From an uncultured Solirubrobacterales bacterium (GTDB lineage Bacteria > Actinomycetota > Thermoleophilia > Solirubrobacterales > JACPNS01), in NCBI GenBank assembly GCA_937128795.1, contig CAKZMQ010000015.1, positions 62,001 through 126,000 on the forward strand: DNA of 64,000 nt, given 5' to 3'. The notes beneath the pieces were generated by a model. That model was not told where the DNA came from and did no database searches. It worked only from the letters and a program-made list of their open reading frames with translations. Shown piece by piece: positions 55,815-64,000 of the stretch. A program made the translations under genes and the position numbers. How positions within the stretch are numbered: position 1 is the first letter of the stretch; every line of letters starts with the position of its first letter.

Positions 55815-55887
55815 GCCGCCATCGTCTAGGGGACTAGGACGCCGCCCTCTCACGGCGGAAACCGGGGTTCGAATCCCCGTGGCGGTA
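55815..55887 (+). tRNA. tRNA-Glu (CTC)
   Basis: gccgccatcgtctaggggactaggacgccgccctctcacggcggaaaccggggttcgaatccccgtggcggta; loop ctctcac. Confidence 0.95.
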
Positions 55888-55922
55888 CTACAGCAAGCCC
55901 CGCAGCAATGCGGGTTTGCAGG

Positions 55923-56043: not shown

Positions 56044-56658
56044 TTAGAACTGGCTCGTGCGCCGGAGTTCCGGAGTCACAAGATCGTGATCTTGGAACCA
56101 ACCGCCGCGATCACCAATACTCGGATCCCAGCGCCAGATGCGATTGTCGAGCGCGTAGATCCAAAGTTCCACCAGTTCGCCGATACTCGCCGCAACCTGC
56201 GGACCGCGATCATTTGGATCCCACATCGGATCGGTGTTTCGGACAGCGCAGCATCCATCATCGTCCGGCGTGCAGTCAACTGCGGTCGGCGCGGTCGTGA
56301 ACGGAAGCCAGGACGGATTCCACCAGTAGTCGGGATCGTCGGGTTCGACTTCTTTGGCTAGCTCCAGTTCGTCGGCGCGCGCGGTGATGGTCTCTGCGAG
56401 AGTCCAAATTCGACGCTGCGGGCCAACAGTGCACGCGTTGCCGCCGTACGGATCGTCGCTGAGTGGAGACGCTCCGTCGTGCCATTTCCACCAAAGCCGG
56501 GCCTCGTCGGGAAGGTGGAGCCCGATCTGAGCCGAGAGTTCGTCAATCTCGGAGTCGCTTAGGCCGGGATTGAGTCTCGAAACTACCGGCGCATCCTGAG
56601 TGAGGAGCGAACTTTCGAGCCTCCCGAGGAGCTCTGTGGACAGCTTAACTTTGCTCAT
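56044..56658 (-). CDS. SMI1/KNR4 (SUKH) family protein
   Basis: NPGLSDSEIDELSAQIGLHLPDEARLWWKWHDGA. Confidence 0.82.
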   Translation of the reverse strand: MSKVKLSTELLGRLESSLLTQDAPVVSRLNPGLSDSEIDELSAQIGLHLPDEARLWWKWHDGASPLSDDPYGGNACTVGPQRRIWTLAETITARADELELAKEVEPDDPDYWWNPSWLPFTTAPTAVDCTPDDDGCCAVRNTDPMWDPNDRGPQVAASIGELVELWIYALDNRIWRWDPSIGDRGGWFQDHDLVTPELRRTSQF

Positions 56659-56759: not shown

Positions 56760-58151
56760 TCACTTCGCTGTGGAGGCCTGCTGCGTCGAGACGTCGTCCG
56801 GATGACGGTCCTCAGGCCAATACTTCAAGCTCTGCATGTACTGGCTCGCCTCTGGGTGCTCCGAAAACTCCAACAGGTTTCCGACCTGTTCCAGCAGTAC
56901 ATCCCTGACTTCTGCCGGCGATGCGAAAAAGAACTCGCGCCGGAGATTTACGTGATTGACGCGTTTCTCGGCAAACGCTTGATGAAGGTCCGCTTCGACC
57001 GAGACAGCATCGTCGGCAAAGAACATCGCGTGAACGTCGAACGGGAATGGCACGGACGCGTCACTTAGTTCCCGAACTCTGTCCATCGGCTCGAGCCGTC
57101 TTGTCAAGCCGATCTTCACAACATTTGGACCCAGCGCCCCCCGGTTGCTGATTACGTATACGTAGCCAGCCCGGATATTCGCGATGCGGTAATCGTTCTT
57201 CTCGATCGCCTCATCGATCGAGTGCAGCCTTTCGTTGAGCTCGGCCATTCCCTCCTCATCACCAGCGGTCTCAAGAGCGGCGAGAGCGTTGGCATAGTGC
57301 CGTCTCTCTTTGTCGAGGCGCGCCTTCTCGGCCGCAAGTTCCTGTTCAGCCCTTCGCTCTTCTCGCAAACGCTCACGTTCGTCGCGCGCTTCCTCCTTCT
57401 CGACCTGAAGCTTCATCAGGTAGTCAGCGGTGAGTTCCAGTTCTTTCACACGGAGGGCGTGATAATCAGGGTTAATTCTCATCTCCATCATCGCGCCAAG
57501 TCGTGCGATCGATGTAACCGATGCCTCAAGGCGCTTTTTCGCAGTGAGGACGTTGCCAGATCGAAGGGCGCGAACGCAATTGTCTGCTTCGACGTTGTAA
57601 GTCCGCAACATCAATTTGGAAAACTCAGAAGTCATTCGCTTGCCCTGCGCCAACGAGTTGTTGTAGGTGAATATGTCGGACGCCAATACAGCCGTTCGCG
57701 CACGCACCATCGTTGAGATATCCGCTTCCAAGCTTTTGAGCTGCTCTTTGTATTCGGCGGCGTTCTCCAGTGGGTGGTGATAGCGATAGATGCCGACTTC
57801 CTGCAGTATGAGGTCGTCGTCAAGTTCCACTCGTCCCTCATCGGATCCGCCAGTGCTCAAACGCAAAACTTCGGCCTCTAACTCGGCCACGCGTTGCTGT
57901 AGTTCCTCGACCGACGTCGGCGGCAGGGTGGCAGTAGCCGCCGATTCCGGCTGGGGGTCTTCCCCGGCAGAATCTGACTCCGGTTGTGCCGCCACAGGTG
58001 ATGCCTCCGCCTGTTCGCGAACCCAAAACTGCCAGCCGTCGGGCGCGGCAGGCCAGCCCGGATCAGGGGTCCAGCCCGGAGGGGGTGACCAACCGTCAGT
58101 CGGAACATCCCAGCCCGGGGGTGGGTTGTACGTGTAACCGGCCGGTGTCAC
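56760..58151 (-). CDS. DUF4041 + T5orf172 (GIY-YIG-like) domain protein with PGW-rich N-terminus
   Basis: N-term NPPPGWDVPTDGWSPPPGWTPDPGWPAAPDGWQFWV; central DUF4041-like coiled coil; C-term GYVYVISNRGALGPNVVKIGLTRRLEPMDRVRELSDASVPFPFDVHAMFF..EADLHQAF. Confidence 0.85.
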   Translation of the reverse strand: MTPAGYTYNPPPGWDVPTDGWSPPPGWTPDPGWPAAPDGWQFWVREQAEASPVAAQPESDSAGEDPQPESAATATLPPTSVEELQQRVAELEAEVLRLSTGGSDEGRVELDDDLILQEVGIYRYHHPLENAAEYKEQLKSLEADISTMVRARTAVLASDIFTYNNSLAQGKRMTSEFSKLMLRTYNVEADNCVRALRSGNVLTAKKRLEASVTSIARLGAMMEMRINPDYHALRVKELELTADYLMKLQVEKEEARDERERLREERRAEQELAAEKARLDKERRHYANALAALETAGDEEGMAELNERLHSIDEAIEKNDYRIANIRAGYVYVISNRGALGPNVVKIGLTRRLEPMDRVRELSDASVPFPFDVHAMFFADDAVSVEADLHQAFAEKRVNHVNLRREFFFASPAEVRDVLLEQVGNLLEFSEHPEASQYMQSLKYWPEDRHPDDVSTQQASTAK

Positions 58152-59416
58152 GTCGCGCGAACTCCCGGTGCGCTGTCGATGCCGACTAGCTCAAACGGAT
58201 TCTTTGAAAGCGCGGCTCCGAGATGTTCCAACGTCGCGGACGGTATGACGTTTCGCAGATCAAACTCCAGGAATGCCTGACGTTCAGCCGCGACAGCGAC
58301 GAATACGATCCGCTGTTCGGAACCGGTGGCAGGATCACGGGCTTCTGTCGCAACTTGCAGCGCGATCGTCTGTATCGTCCCAGCGCGATCCGCCTCAAAG
58401 ATCTCGTGTAACACCCTCAACGCGACCTGGTGGACCACGCTCGCATAGCGATCCTTCTGCGCCTTCTTAGATAGTGCCGTTGCGGTGATTTCATCCTTCG
58501 CCTTGACGTATTTGTAGGTCTTCTCACCGGGGAGAGAGTCTGGGCGAGCTATCAGGACGGTGAGGGTCAGCTCCGAAGTCGTTGGGTCGAATTCGTACTC
58601 GTGCTCCACATCAAGCCATTCGGGGTAGACAGCGTTTCCCAGAACGATCCCCACGTATTGAGTTACCGCATCATGCTCGCCAGCCGCGAGTCCGGCGATT
58701 AGGGAATCGAGCTGCTGATTGGCATCGGCGGTTTCGAGTTCGCGCAGCTGACATTCGCTCGCGTAGGCATCTCTGGCTGCTTTCAACTCATCGAGCCTGC
58801 GTTGTTCGGCGACTTCACGCTGGCGCTGTTGCTCCTGCTCACGGGCGGGAAGCGATGCCAGCTCTGCCTGCCATGCCTCGTGCTGCTGAGCAAATGTCAA
58901 TCGCGCCGACTCGACTGCCGCTGCATGCTTTTTCTTGCCGCCAAAGATGTTTCCAATTCCTGTAGGAGGCGTGGGTTCGCTAAACACTGGCTCGGGGGGA
59001 GACGCGAGTGGCGTGACCTCAGGCGTCTCAACCTCAAGGTCGGTGCGCGGAAACGGCGGGTGGTCAGGCACGGCTCTGAGGGTTTCGAGCTCAACGTAAT
59101 CATCAACATCGAGTGTCGCGGCCAGAATCGAGGAGAGTTCTTCGTCCAGCTCGGCCAGCTGCGTATTGAGCGCATCGACCTCTGCCAACTGCGCCTCCTG
59201 ATGGAGGCGCTTGGCTTCCTTTGCTGCAGCCTTCTGCTCCGCAGCGGAGGCTCTAGCCGCCGCTGCGGCTGCGCGCTCCGCCTGACGCTGGGCGCGTTCC
59301 ATCTCACGCACGGCGGCCGCGTGCGCTCGATGCTGTTCACGCTGCTGGCGCTCCCTCGCACGTGCCGCCTGTTTATTCTGATGCTGTATCTCGGCAAAGA
59401 ACCCGCGTCGTCCCAT
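58148..59416 (-). CDS. Coiled-coil protein of unknown function, coupled upstream of the DUF4041 gene
   Basis: MGRRGFFAEIQHQNKQAARARERQQREQHRAHAAAVREMERAQRQAERAAAAAARASAAEQKAAAKEAKRLH...; 4-nt ATGA overlap with the downstream gene. Confidence 0.8.
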   Translation of the reverse strand: MGRRGFFAEIQHQNKQAARARERQQREQHRAHAAAVREMERAQRQAERAAAAAARASAAEQKAAAKEAKRLHQEAQLAEVDALNTQLAELDEELSSILAATLDVDDYVELETLRAVPDHPPFPRTDLEVETPEVTPLASPPEPVFSEPTPPTGIGNIFGGKKKHAAAVESARLTFAQQHEAWQAELASLPAREQEQQRQREVAEQRRLDELKAARDAYASECQLRELETADANQQLDSLIAGLAAGEHDAVTQYVGIVLGNAVYPEWLDVEHEYEFDPTTSELTLTVLIARPDSLPGEKTYKYVKAKDEITATALSKKAQKDRYASVVHQVALRVLHEIFEADRAGTIQTIALQVATEARDPATGSEQRIVFVAVAAERQAFLEFDLRNVIPSATLEHLGAALSKNPFELVGIDSAPGVRAT

Positions 59417-59613: not shown

Positions 59614-60216
59614 TCACGCGCTTCCGTCTCGCGTTGTGGTGAAATCGATCAGCGAATGAAGGTCTGCGTCCGAAATGCCCATTTCGCGATCGGTTCTAAG
59701 TAGAAGTGACGGGCTCGACCATTCATGCGCAAACCTACGAGATTCGAAGTTAATGTGATCATCCACCCAGGCGAATGCTCGACCTCTGTTCGGTTCGGAC
59801 GTTAGAAATTCAGCCACCACCGGCAACTTCCGCACAATCGACGGACTTCCATAACTTCGGTCCCACTTCAAATCTTCAGGCCGAGTAAACGGATCGTGAT
59901 GCCAAAGCGGCAACCCATCGTCACCCTCGACCTCATAGTGCGCGGTGTCACCTTCCTTGCCTTCCGGGATCTCCAAGAACGGCCGCGGCGGAAGCCCATA
60001 AATCGCACCCAGCTCGTTCGCGTGCTCCATCCAGTCGGTGCACCAAATGATCTCGAACGCCGCGTCGAGCGCAGCAAGCCGCTCCTGATTCTCCGGCACG
60101 ATCGGAATGCTCGCAACAGCGACGAACTGCTTCGGCCATTCCGGACGATCACCGAACGGCGCGATCACGCCGTCGACATCAAGAAACAGGAATGGCTTGG
60201 GGGAGTTGGCAGTCAT
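59614..60216 (-). CDS. HAD-like hydrolase
   Basis: PFLFLDVDGVIAPFGD; WCTDWMEHANELGAIYGLP; AFAWVDDHI. Confidence 0.85.
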   Translation of the reverse strand: MTANSPKPFLFLDVDGVIAPFGDRPEWPKQFVAVASIPIVPENQERLAALDAAFEIIWCTDWMEHANELGAIYGLPPRPFLEIPEGKEGDTAHYEVEGDDGLPLWHHDPFTRPEDLKWDRSYGSPSIVRKLPVVAEFLTSEPNRGRAFAWVDDHINFESRRFAHEWSSPSLLLRTDREMGISDADLHSLIDFTTTRDGSA

Positions 60217-61378
60217 CGTGAGGCCTCCGCTTCCAGATACGCGTCTAGCACCTGCGTAACGACAACGATCTGATCCTCGCGGACGTGGCCGTAGATGTCC
60301 TTCGTCACGTTGACGCTGCTGTGGCCCATGATGTGCGTGAGTTCCAGATCGCCGAGTCCTGCGTAGCTGCCGAGGGTTGCGGCGGAGTGCCGAGCTTCGT
60401 GCAAAGTGATCGGCACCAGTCCGGCCTTGTCCCACGCGCGGCGAGCCGTCCGATTCACCGTCGTCGGCACAAACCGATCGACCGCCGACCTTCCGAACAC
60501 AAGATCGAACCCGCCGCGACCCGTCGCGAGCTTGTGTTTGATCAACCGCTGCCTGACTCGTTTGACGAGCGGGAACATTCGGACGCCGGCCTCGGTCTTG
60601 GTCGCGACCACGCACTTGCCTTCGTCATCCCACGCGCGCGAGCATCGGCCGATTCCGCGATCCAGTTCCAGATCCTCCCAGCGCAGCTCCTGAAGCTCAC
60701 CCCGCCGCAAACCGACGTAAAGAGCCATCGACCAAAGGGCCTGTTAAAGGGGGAGAGCGCTTCGATCAGTGCTTCAGCTTCCGCGGGTGTGACCGTGCGC
60801 TCCCGCCGCGCATTGCTCGGCGGCAGTCGCAGCTTTGCCGTCGGATCGTGCGTGAGGATTTCGTCGTCGAACGCCTTGCGGCAGATCACGCGGATCGGAT
60901 CGATGTGATTGCGTACTGAGCTTGGGCCGAATCCGTCAGCGGCGAGCTTCGCGGCGAACGACTTGATGTCGCGGCGGCTCAGGTCTGTGATCCGGACGCC
61001 GCCAAGCTCGGCCTTGATCCGCTCGGCGGAACGCGCGTAGCCACGGATCACAGAGGGCTTGTACGGACGGTGGGAGCGATTGAGAATTGCGCCCGACTTC
61101 ATCCCGTCGATGTACTCGTCCAGCGCTTGGGCGACCGTCAGGCGCGAGGCGGCCGGGAGCGCGCCGCCTTGCTTCGATGCCGTGGTTAGCTCAGCACGCC
61201 ATGACTTGGCTTGGCTGACCGTCGGGAAGACCTTCTTGAGTCGCTTGTTGTTTCGCGCAATCCAGACGCTCGCCTGGTAGCTCGGATTGCACCGACAGCT
61301 TCCGTCGGATTTGCGCCCGTTGCACTTCGAGCTGTGCTGGTAGTAGATGCCGTCGCTGTGTCGTTCGTGCCTGCTCAT
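60213..61378 (-). pseudogene. Tyrosine integrase split by a single frameshift near 60731-60743
   Basis: N-part ends ...AEALIEALSPFN then goes out of frame; C-part resumes ALWSMALYVGLRRGELQELRWEDL ... LHEARHSAATLGSYAGLGDLELTHIMGHSSVNVTKDIYGH. Confidence 0.88.
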
Positions 61379-61559: not shown

Positions 61560-61808
61560 TCATCGGGAAAGTCGGTCGGCGGGGGAGGGCTCGGTGTGGT
61601 CGTCGACGTAGCGCTCGATCTCGCGCGGGGAGTAGAGCGTCACGCGCCCGATACGGACGTGTCGCAGGTACGGGCGCACGTTGCGGTCGAAGTGATCGAC
61701 GCTGACGCCGATCGCCTGCGCGGCCTCCTCACGACGCAGCAGGATCCGATCGATCCGGGTGCGGCCGGCCTGAAGGTTGATCTGAGGTTTGTTCGCTGGT
61801 GCCGCCAT
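61560..61808 (-). CDS. Excisionase-like HTH protein
   Basis: LLRREEAAQAIGVSVDHFDRNVRPYLRHVRIGRVTLYSPREIERYV; upstream of the integrase on the same strand. Confidence 0.82.
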   Translation of the reverse strand: MAAPANKPQINLQAGRTRIDRILLRREEAAQAIGVSVDHFDRNVRPYLRHVRIGRVTLYSPREIERYVDDHTEPSPADRLSR

Positions 61809-62044: not shown

Positions 62045-62200
62045 GATGGGTTCAGGTAGTCACTTGAGAGGGATAAAACAAAAAGACACAGTTGCACAGA
62101 ATGTGCGAAACGGGGTGCTGGCAGCGTGGAATCCCTTTGCTGAAGCGGGATTCACGGCACAGAATTGTGTTTTGCGACCGTAACGAGTAAGTTACGCGAA

Positions 62201-62545
62201 ATGGACGCTGATTGGCAGCTTGAATTCGAGTACGACGAGTACACCGAGGATGATCAGGACGACGTCGGGCTGAGGCCTGCGAGCGGGCGTGAGGCTGACG
62301 AAAAAGTCAGAGATCTCGCCACTGACCTGATCCGCGAGATCGAGTCCGAACGTCGCAGGCTCGACATGTCGAAGGCTGCGCTCGCAAGGAGGATTGGCAA
62401 GCAGCCGGCAGCCGTGCGGCGGCTGCTTACGACGGAGTGCAACCCCGAGCTTTACACCTTGATCGAACTGGCCGACGCGCTCGGCCTGAACTTGACGCTC
62501 AGTCGTCGTAGGGGTCGTCCGCCGGGTAGCCGTCGAACCCACTGA
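62201..62545 (+). CDS. XRE-family HTH regulator
   Basis: ESERRRLDMSKAALARRIGKQPAAVRRLLTTECNPELYTLIELADALGLNLTL; start may be 62165. Confidence 0.8.
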   Translation: MDADWQLEFEYDEYTEDDQDDVGLRPASGREADEKVRDLATDLIREIESERRRLDMSKAALARRIGKQPAAVRRLLTTECNPELYTLIELADALGLNLTLSRRRGRPPGSRRTH

Positions 62546-62956: not shown

Positions 62957-63865
62957 CTATGATTCTGTCGAATCGCTGCTGCTCACCGCGGCCAGGTACA
63001 CGATGAACGATCCTGTAATGTGGATCGCGAGGTCGACTATTTCGTCCGGGACACTGGCGTCCGAGCCTGGATGTCGACCGTGGGCATCGCCGAGCGTGTT
63101 TCGAACGGCGCCAACTCGCTTGAGGATCTCCGCTAGCGACGACGGCAGTGACGAAATCTGCGCATGAGGGAAGTCGGCGCGCTTGAACCCGTCGGCGAGC
63201 TGGCCGAGGTTGTTGCCACTTATCCCAGAGGCTTTAAGCGCGGACTCCAACGCCGCGTTTGCTGCGGTCAAGGCATCGTCGTTTTCATCCTTCGGGCCTC
63301 GCTGATGGTGGAGCGCCTCTCGGAACGACCGGTCGACGTGTTCCCAACCGGTTCTATTCGTCGATAGCAGTGCCGGGCCGATTACAACTTCGGAAAGGGC
63401 CGGAGAACCTACTTGTTGGATCAAACCATCTTGTAGCCGGTAGCCGAATCTATGCCGGTCAGAGAGCTGGTTGTACTTGGTCTCGAAATCCGAGAACGGC
63501 ACTCCTTTTGCGGTGCGGTAGAGGAGTGATCCGCCCGAGTGAAAAGCTTGGCGATAGTTGATCTGAATCGGCGCGATTTCAGCGACGATCTCGACGAAAT
63601 CGAGCAGTTCGTCGATCTTTGACCATTGGATCCAATTTTCAATGGATTCACTCGGCGCCCAACCAAAGTGCTCGACGCTCTTCCTGTGCAGTTCGGACTT
63701 GAACGCTTTCCCGAGGCTGTCGGTCTTGAATCTCTCAGCTAGGACGAACATAAGCGCCGTCCTCAGCGGATCGGGCACTTGGTCAAAAGTGAGCGGTCCA
63801 AGTGCGCCGGTCTCAGCAATTTGCTTTCGTTCGCTGAATCGCAACCTTGTGCCTTCAGTGCTCAT
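62957..63865 (-). CDS. Abortive infection family protein (AbiJ-like N-terminus, Abi_C-like C-terminus)
   Basis: MSTEGTRLRFSERKQ...; C-term ALESALKASGISGNNLGQLADGFK..LAEILKRVGAVRNTLGDAHGRHPGSDASVPDEIVDLAIHITGSFIVYL resembles Abi_C. Confidence 0.72.
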   Translation of the reverse strand: MSTEGTRLRFSERKQIAETGALGPLTFDQVPDPLRTALMFVLAERFKTDSLGKAFKSELHRKSVEHFGWAPSESIENWIQWSKIDELLDFVEIVAEIAPIQINYRQAFHSGGSLLYRTAKGVPFSDFETKYNQLSDRHRFGYRLQDGLIQQVGSPALSEVVIGPALLSTNRTGWEHVDRSFREALHHQRGPKDENDDALTAANAALESALKASGISGNNLGQLADGFKRADFPHAQISSLPSSLAEILKRVGAVRNTLGDAHGRHPGSDASVPDEIVDLAIHITGSFIVYLAAVSSSDSTES

Positions 63866-64000
63866 TCGGCGGTCTTCACTCCTTTTGGTTCGATTTCTTC
63901 CGATTCGATTCTGGCGAGCACTTCGACGATCCGCGGATTCGACGCCACCGAGTTCATACGCACGCGATAAGTGGCCCAACGACTAAGGAGGTCAGTCGTC

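What the first reader, a model, noticed from the sequence alone, without database searches (positions are those of the whole stretch)
56760..59416. Candidate undescribed two-gene system: coiled-coil protein coupled to a PGW-DUF4041-T5orf172 protein
Gene A (58148-59416) is a basic Ala/Arg/Glu coiled coil with a C-terminal globular domain of unknown function. Gene B starts inside A's stop (ATGA overlap), so the two are co-translated. B carries an N-terminal PGW-rich segment, a DUF4041-like coiled coil and a GIY-YIG-superfamily T5orf172 domain with GYVYVISN...VKIGLTRR...DRVREL...E..LH. A coupled coiled-coil sensor and GIY-YIG nuclease in an island next to SUKH and Abi genes would fit an anti-phage or plasmid-exclusion module. 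To my knowledge this pair is not a named defence system.
Basis: partly seen in the sequence, partly recalled or inferred. Interest (0 to 1): 0.68.

Follow-up and report, generated by a model that had tools for sequence, protein, structure and literature searches.

The report
Two-gene SNIPE-type nuclease defence variant
Two overlapping genes on a small mobile island form a conserved pair: a relative of SNIPE, a known nuclease that cuts phage DNA, travels with a partner protein that in other bacteria is fused to an unrelated restriction nuclease, so the pair looks like a DNA-cutting defence system with an interchangeable blade.

Summary
A (58148-59416 -) and B (56760-58151 -) are real, co-oriented and overlap by 4 nt (GTGA, not ATGA). 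B is not undescribed: it is a PD-λ-1/SNIPE homologue (PADLOC E 1e-103; DUF4041 + T5orf172), with SNIPE's catalytic E414 kept as E386. Unlike SNIPE it has no transmembrane segment. A matches no Pfam family. It is the nuclease-less front part of a type IV "mREase_IV" protein: in 22 of the A-homologue loci read here the same module continues into a Mrr_cat nuclease, and none has a B gene nearby. All 60 intact free-standing A genes found, the window included, have B adjacent. This holds across Actinomycetota, Nitrospirota, Pseudomonadota, Planctomycetota, Acidobacteriota and a Peribacteraceae bin. The -4 overlap recurs in 34 of 62 loci. Neighbouring genes are rich in defence families compared with random regions of the same genomes. 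The window pair sits in a 9.4-kb tRNA-Glu element with SUKH and Abi genes. I read it as a two-component variant of PD-λ-1/SNIPE: A restrains and targets B, and the nuclease is swapped between PD-(D/E)XK in cis and GIY-YIG in trans. Defence activity and mechanism are inferred. No description of the pair was found in the papers searched.

The parts
58148..59416 (-). Gene A: 422-aa protein, long coiled-coil hairpin (helices 6-95 and 160-244) + C-terminal alpha/beta domain (about 245-415); the nuclease-less part of A-Mrr 'mREase_IV' proteins
   Evidence: ORF; PADLOC PDLC03663 positions 6-380 of 544, E 3.9e-32; no Pfam hit; AlphaFold mean pLDDT 93
56760..58151 (-). Gene B: 463-aa PD-lambda-1/SNIPE-family protein: PGW-rich N-terminus, DUF4041, long helix, GIY-YIG (T5orf172/MUG113) nuclease domain; GTG start overlapping A's stop by 4 nt
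   Evidence: PADLOC PD-Lambda-1 E 9.8e-104; Pfam; catalytic E386 = PD-lambda-1 E414, invariant; structure model
56044..56658 (-). SUKH (SMI1/KNR4) protein, cargo of the same element
   Evidence: PF09346 E 2e-7; PADLOC PDC-M40A E 7e-12
55815..55888 (+). tRNA-Glu(CTC), integration target
   Evidence: ARAGORN
55863..55892 (+). attachment repeat (tRNA 3' end); second copy (28/30 bp, 24 bp exact) at 65225-65254, just outside the window, 9362 bp away
59614..60216 (-). HAD_SAK_2 protein, cargo
   Evidence: PF18143 E 4.6e-7
60213..61375 (-). tyrosine integrase of the element, split into two overlapping frames (frameshift near 60730)
   Evidence: catalytic part 60213-60728 PF00589 E 2e-16; SAM-like N-terminal part in 60542-61375
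61560..61808 (-). small HTH protein, possible excisionase
   Evidence: HTH_17 E 0.046, below the curated cut-off
62165..62545 (+). HTH_3 regulator
   Evidence: PF01381 E 8e-6
62957..63868 (-). AbiJ_NTD4 / Abi_C abortive-infection-like protein, cargo
   Evidence: PF18863 E 3.5e-9, PF14355 E 8e-6; PADLOC PDC-S32 E 7e-5

Best explanation
A and B form a two-component, nuclease-based defence module carried as cargo of a 9.4-kb integrated element. B is a soluble member of the PD-λ-1/SNIPE family that cuts DNA with its GIY-YIG domain and holds DNA or a phage component with DUF4041. A is the recognition and regulatory subunit: a long coiled-coil hairpin with an uncharacterised alpha/beta domain that holds B inactive and brings it to foreign DNA or an infection structure. 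A does the job that the membrane anchor does in SNIPE, and that the covalent fusion does in A-Mrr type IV enzymes. Shown here: homology, catalytic residues, obligatory linkage of free-standing A to B, exclusion between B and a fused Mrr nuclease, overlap and co-divergence, defence-rich surroundings. Inferred: physical A-B complex, restraint and targeting by A, DNA as target, protection against phage or plasmids.
For: B: PADLOC PD-Lambda-1 E 1e-103; E386 aligns with E414 of PD-λ-1, and E414A abolishes SNIPE defence (PMC13190303). A: PADLOC mREase_IV 6-380/544; L008 matches that model full length, E 2e-118, with Mrr_cat. All intact free-standing A genes (59 loci plus window) have B adjacent; 22 A-Mrr loci have none. 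Stop/start overlap -4 in 34 and -1 in 7 of 62 loci. A and B distances correlate r 0.85, 0 of 2000 permutations as high. 61 A-linked Bs form one clade (100/95). A separate Cellulomonas pairing has TerD fused to both A and B. Defence enrichment: 76 PADLOC families hit by 129 neighbour ORFs versus 3 by 111 control ORFs. SNIPE without its TM is toxic and sits on the nucleoid (PMC13190303); A-linked Bs have no TM, so a restraint is expected.
Against: No experiment. Solitary actinobacterial B homologues also lack a TM and exist without A, so B alone can be viable and A need not be the restraint. A's alpha/beta domain has no significant solved-structure match, so no ligand or DNA-binding role is shown. 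A is acidic overall. The distance correlation partly reflects shared host phylogeny.
Confidence: 0.55

Rival explanations
1. B is an ordinary, self-sufficient SNIPE homologue that cuts phage DNA on its own; A is an accessory, for example a scaffold that clusters B or links it to the envelope or phage injection site in place of a TM helix, without recognising DNA.
For: Solitary B homologues are common on plasmids and in phages (188 plasmid and 47 phage records). TM-less SNIPE homologues are 34% of the published set and often carry other membrane-targeting N-termini (PMC13190303). A has a ~90-residue coiled-coil hairpin.
Against: A is never found intact without a nuclease partner (B or fused Mrr), which fits a nuclease subunit better than a generic anchor. 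A has no TM or lipid-binding domain that I could detect.
Confidence: 0.2
2. Toxin-antitoxin or abortive infection: B is a toxic host-cutting nuclease and A its upstream-encoded antidote, released on infection.
For: A-first order with 4-nt overlap. Truncated, TM-less SNIPE is toxic through its nuclease (PMC13190303).
Against: A's homologue is fused in cis to an active-looking Mrr nuclease, which argues for a recognition or effector-domain role rather than a dedicated antitoxin of GIY-YIG nucleases. Solitary TM-less B genes persist without A.
Confidence: 0.15
3. The pair serves element maintenance or DNA processing (homing, exclusion of competing elements) rather than host defence.
For: It is carried on an integrated element with integrase; T5orf172 domains also occur in phage homing-type nucleases (established knowledge).
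Against: Neighbourhoods in other phyla are defence-rich without one recurring integrase family among the top hits; PD-λ-1 was isolated by phage-defence selection (PMC9519451).
Confidence: 0.1

Closest known systems
PD-λ-1 / SNIPE (DUF4041 + GIY-YIG; E. coli; PMC9519451, PMC13190303)
   Same: B has the same DUF4041-helix-GIY-YIG order, the catalytic Glu (E386 = E414) and all conserved motif residues
   Different: B has no TM (N-terminal hydropathy maximum 0.74 versus 3.37), has a PGW-rich N-terminus, is about 28% identical to PD-λ-1, and is encoded with A
PADLOC mREase_IV PDLC03663 (coiled coil + middle domain + Mrr_cat type IV enzymes)
   Same: A aligns over the whole non-nuclease part (6-380 of 544)
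   Different: A ends where the Mrr_cat domain would begin; the nuclease is a separate GIY-YIG protein
CoCoNuTs (coiled-coil nuclease tandem type IV systems, PMC11090510)
   Same: coiled coil plus nuclease; a type IV-like theme
   Different: no McrB-type GTPase in either protein
TerD-linked A-Mrr-TerD and B/A-TerD loci
   Same: same A module; Cellulomonas L085 pairs TerD-B with A-TerD
   Different: the window proteins have no TerD domain

Membership tests
PD-λ-1 / SNIPE family (gene B) | DUF4041 domain upstream of a C-terminal GIY-YIG domain | tested here: met
   Pfam DUF4041 179-234 and T5orf172 329-419; PADLOC PD-Lambda-1 E 9.8e-104
PD-λ-1 / SNIPE family (gene B) | catalytic Glu (E414) and GIY-YIG motif residues | tested here: met
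   E386 aligns with E414; G329, Y332, G348, R351, R358, E386, H390, N402 invariant in 51 sequences
PD-λ-1 / SNIPE family (gene B) | N-terminal membrane anchor | tested here: not met
   hydropathy maximum 0.74 against 3.37 in PD-λ-1; about a third of published homologues also lack a TM
PD-λ-1 / SNIPE family (gene B) | acts as a single gene | tested here: inconclusive
   encoded with A in its whole clade; whether B works alone cannot be tested here
PD-λ-1 / SNIPE family (gene B) | blocks phage by cutting injected DNA | not testable with these tools
   needs infection assays
mREase_IV A-Mrr enzymes (gene A) | coiled coil + alpha/beta middle domain | tested here: met
   PADLOC 6-380/544; alignment with 12 fused proteins
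mREase_IV A-Mrr enzymes (gene A) | C-terminal Mrr_cat PD-(D/E)XK nuclease | tested here: not met
   A ends at residue 422; no Mrr_cat hit; fused relatives have Mrr_cat from about residue 380-435
mREase_IV A-Mrr enzymes (gene A) | cleavage depends on DNA modification | not testable with these tools
   the label is PADLOC's annotation; no assay
CoCoNuT / McrBC | McrB-type AAA+ GTPase | tested here: not met
   no such domain in A or B
Toxin-antitoxin | toxin neutralised by its cognate partner | not testable with these tools
   gene order and overlap are compatible only

The most novel reading that the evidence does not exclude
A is a stand-alone foreign-DNA recognition module that works with interchangeable, unrelated nucleases: PD-(D/E)XK Mrr in cis, or a DUF4041-GIY-YIG (SNIPE-family) nuclease in trans. 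This would be an undescribed two-component restriction-like system linking the SNIPE and type IV restriction families.
Probability: 0.4. Interest if true: 0.75.

Novelty: new variant of a known kind. Interest (0 to 1): 0.6.

Why it matters
SNIPE tells self from non-self by sitting in the membrane, yet about a third of its published homologues have no TM helix, and a SNIPE without its TM attacks the host chromosome. This pair names a concrete partner gene, obligatorily linked to one large TM-less clade, that may supply the missing control. It also ties the SNIPE family to type IV restriction enzymes through a shared unnamed module, so the same recognition part could be tested with two unrelated nucleases. 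Current tools would annotate the locus as a lone PD-Lambda-1 gene and miss A.

Tried and rejected
Viral contig scan and phage collection for A: nothing, so A is not phage-borne in these sets, whereas B-like genes are. Pfam and NCBIfam for A: none. Foldseek of A against PDB: no hit at E<=0.001 (best 3ib5, E 0.004, TM 0.15); against viral models only a weak hit (E 1e-3, TM 0.2); not interpreted. Foldseek of B: dominated by coiled coils; Slx1 GIY-YIG structures appear only at E>2, so the fold assignment rests on Pfam and residues. Sequence search of solved structures: coiled-coil noise. 'TM loss is specific to A-linked Bs' rejected: solitary actinobacterial Bs also lack TM. 'PGW segment is the A-binding part' rejected as a general rule: about 15 A-linked Bs lack it and solitary L108 has it. 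Apparent free-standing A without B (L010, L011, L018, L021, L088, L094, L096, L097) are fragments, frameshifted fusions or contig ends.

Full report
OBSERVATION. Both ORFs are present as described: A at 58148-59416 (-), 422 aa; B at 56760-58151 (-), 463 aa. The stop of A and the start of B overlap by four bases, but the sequence is GTGA (B starts with GTG), not ATGA. A is acidic overall, not basic.

B IS A KNOWN FAMILY. B hits Pfam DUF4041, MUG113 and T5orf172 and PADLOC's PD-Lambda-1 models at 1e-103 and 1e-97. PD-λ-1 was found by functional selection in E. coli (PMC9519451) and renamed SNIPE in 2026: a membrane-anchored GIY-YIG nuclease that cuts phage DNA during injection, with DUF4041 needed for DNA and tape-measure-protein binding (PMC13190303). 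In my alignment window residue E386 falls on residue 414 of an annotated PD-lambda-1 protein (phage PhiR26_1), the catalytic Glu of the paper; it and the other GIY-YIG residues are invariant in 51 sequences. B lacks the TM helix: its N-terminal hydropathy maximum is 0.74 against 3.37 for PD-λ-1.

A IS HALF OF A RESTRICTION ENZYME. A has no Pfam or NCBIfam hit but matches positions 6-380 of PADLOC's 544-position mREase_IV model PDLC03663. Homologues such as L008, L009 and L003 match that model to its end, and their C-terminus is a Mrr-like nuclease, Mrr_cat by Pfam in L008 and L009. The alignment of A with fused relatives runs through the coiled-coil hairpin and the alpha/beta domain, and A stops where the linker to Mrr begins. 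AlphaFold gives a very confident model (mean pLDDT 93): helices 6-95 and 160-244, then an alpha/beta domain with no convincing solved relative.

THE PAIR IS CONSERVED. One scan of 84,980 species genomes with an alignment of three A proteins gave 73 loci. Scanning their ORFs with profiles of A, B and Mrr, together with loci from other searches, every intact free-standing A (59 loci plus the window) has B adjacent: downstream on the same strand in all but Cellulomonas L085, where B precedes A. The 22 loci with A fused to, or in frameshifted continuity with, Mrr have no B in the stretch read. The eight A-only cases are fragments, frameshifts or contig ends. Scan patterns came from free-standing A, so the ratio of the two types is biased, but the exclusion is not. 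Hosts include Actinomycetota, Nitrospirota, Acidobacteriota, Planctomycetota, Pseudomonadota and a Peribacteraceae bin (some are MAGs, where contamination is possible). B starts 4 bases inside A's stop in 34 of 62 loci and 1 base in 7. A and B distance matrices correlate at r = 0.85, 0 of 2000 permutations as high; shared host ancestry contributes. In the B tree 61 A-linked Bs form one clade (100/95); L085 is separate and its A falls among the fused forms, so the pairing probably arose twice, although L085 sits on a long branch. In L085 TerD is fused to both proteins, and TerD also caps an A-Mrr protein, L013.

CONTEXT. In the window the pair lies between a 30-bp direct repeat (28/30 identical, 24 bp exact) of the tRNA-Glu 3' end at 55863-55892 and 65225-65254. 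The 9.4-kb element carries SUKH, B, A, a HAD protein, a frameshifted integrase, HTH proteins, an AbiJ/Abi_C protein and an RNase H-like protein. Around 20 other A-B loci, 129 neighbouring ORFs hit 76 PADLOC families at E<=1e-10 (including two mREase_IV models, AbiEi, HEC-01, AriA, PbeA, SoFic, PD-Lambda-2_B), against 3 families, mostly generic enzymes, for 111 ORFs from arbitrary regions of the same 20 genomes. Several models can hit one protein, so this is a family count, not a gene count.

MECHANISM. The most economical reading is a two-subunit nuclease: A recognises and regulates, B cuts. The same A module is attached either in cis to a PD-(D/E)XK nuclease or in trans to an unrelated GIY-YIG nuclease, which is what one expects if A supplies specificity. 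SNIPE without its TM cuts the host chromosome, so a TM-less B should need restraint, and A is the candidate. This last step is weakened by solitary TM-less Bs, some of which have other N-terminal modules (DUF4429 by Pfam in L104; DUF2510-like and PGW by eye) and may be controlled differently.

NOVELTY. B alone is a known kind. I found no description of the A-B pair in the papers searched, and the SNIPE paper's text showed no partner gene for SNIPE homologues in a term search. Subscription papers and preprints were not searchable. I file it as a new two-component variant of PD-λ-1/SNIPE.

Noticed in passing
window 55863-55892 and L098:10726-10755: A 9.4-kb integrated element in tRNA-Glu(CTC) with a frameshifted integrase whose cargo is largely defence-like (SUKH, PD-lambda-1 pair, AbiJ/Abi_C).
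   Followed up: yes
L085:4118-7731: Cellulomonas locus in reversed order: TerD-DUF4041-GIY-YIG followed by A-TerD, suggesting that TerD links the two proteins.
   Followed up: partly
L004, L013, L015, L017: Streptomyces-type proteins with coiled coil + A domain + Mrr_cat + C-terminal TerD (TerD confirmed by Pfam for L013 only).
   Followed up: partly
L119:3353-5029 and L122:2746-4038: Actinobacteriophages Mask and Poushou encode DUF4041/GIY-YIG proteins close to their integrase genes, annotated hypothetical or ATPase.
   Followed up: no
L098:9363-10301 (window about 63862-64800): RNase HI-like protein (by eye) inside the element next to the attR repeat.
   Followed up: no
L103:4393-5532: A module preceded by a zinc-ribbon-like N-terminus and truncated at its C-terminus, with no nuclease found nearby.
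   Followed up: no
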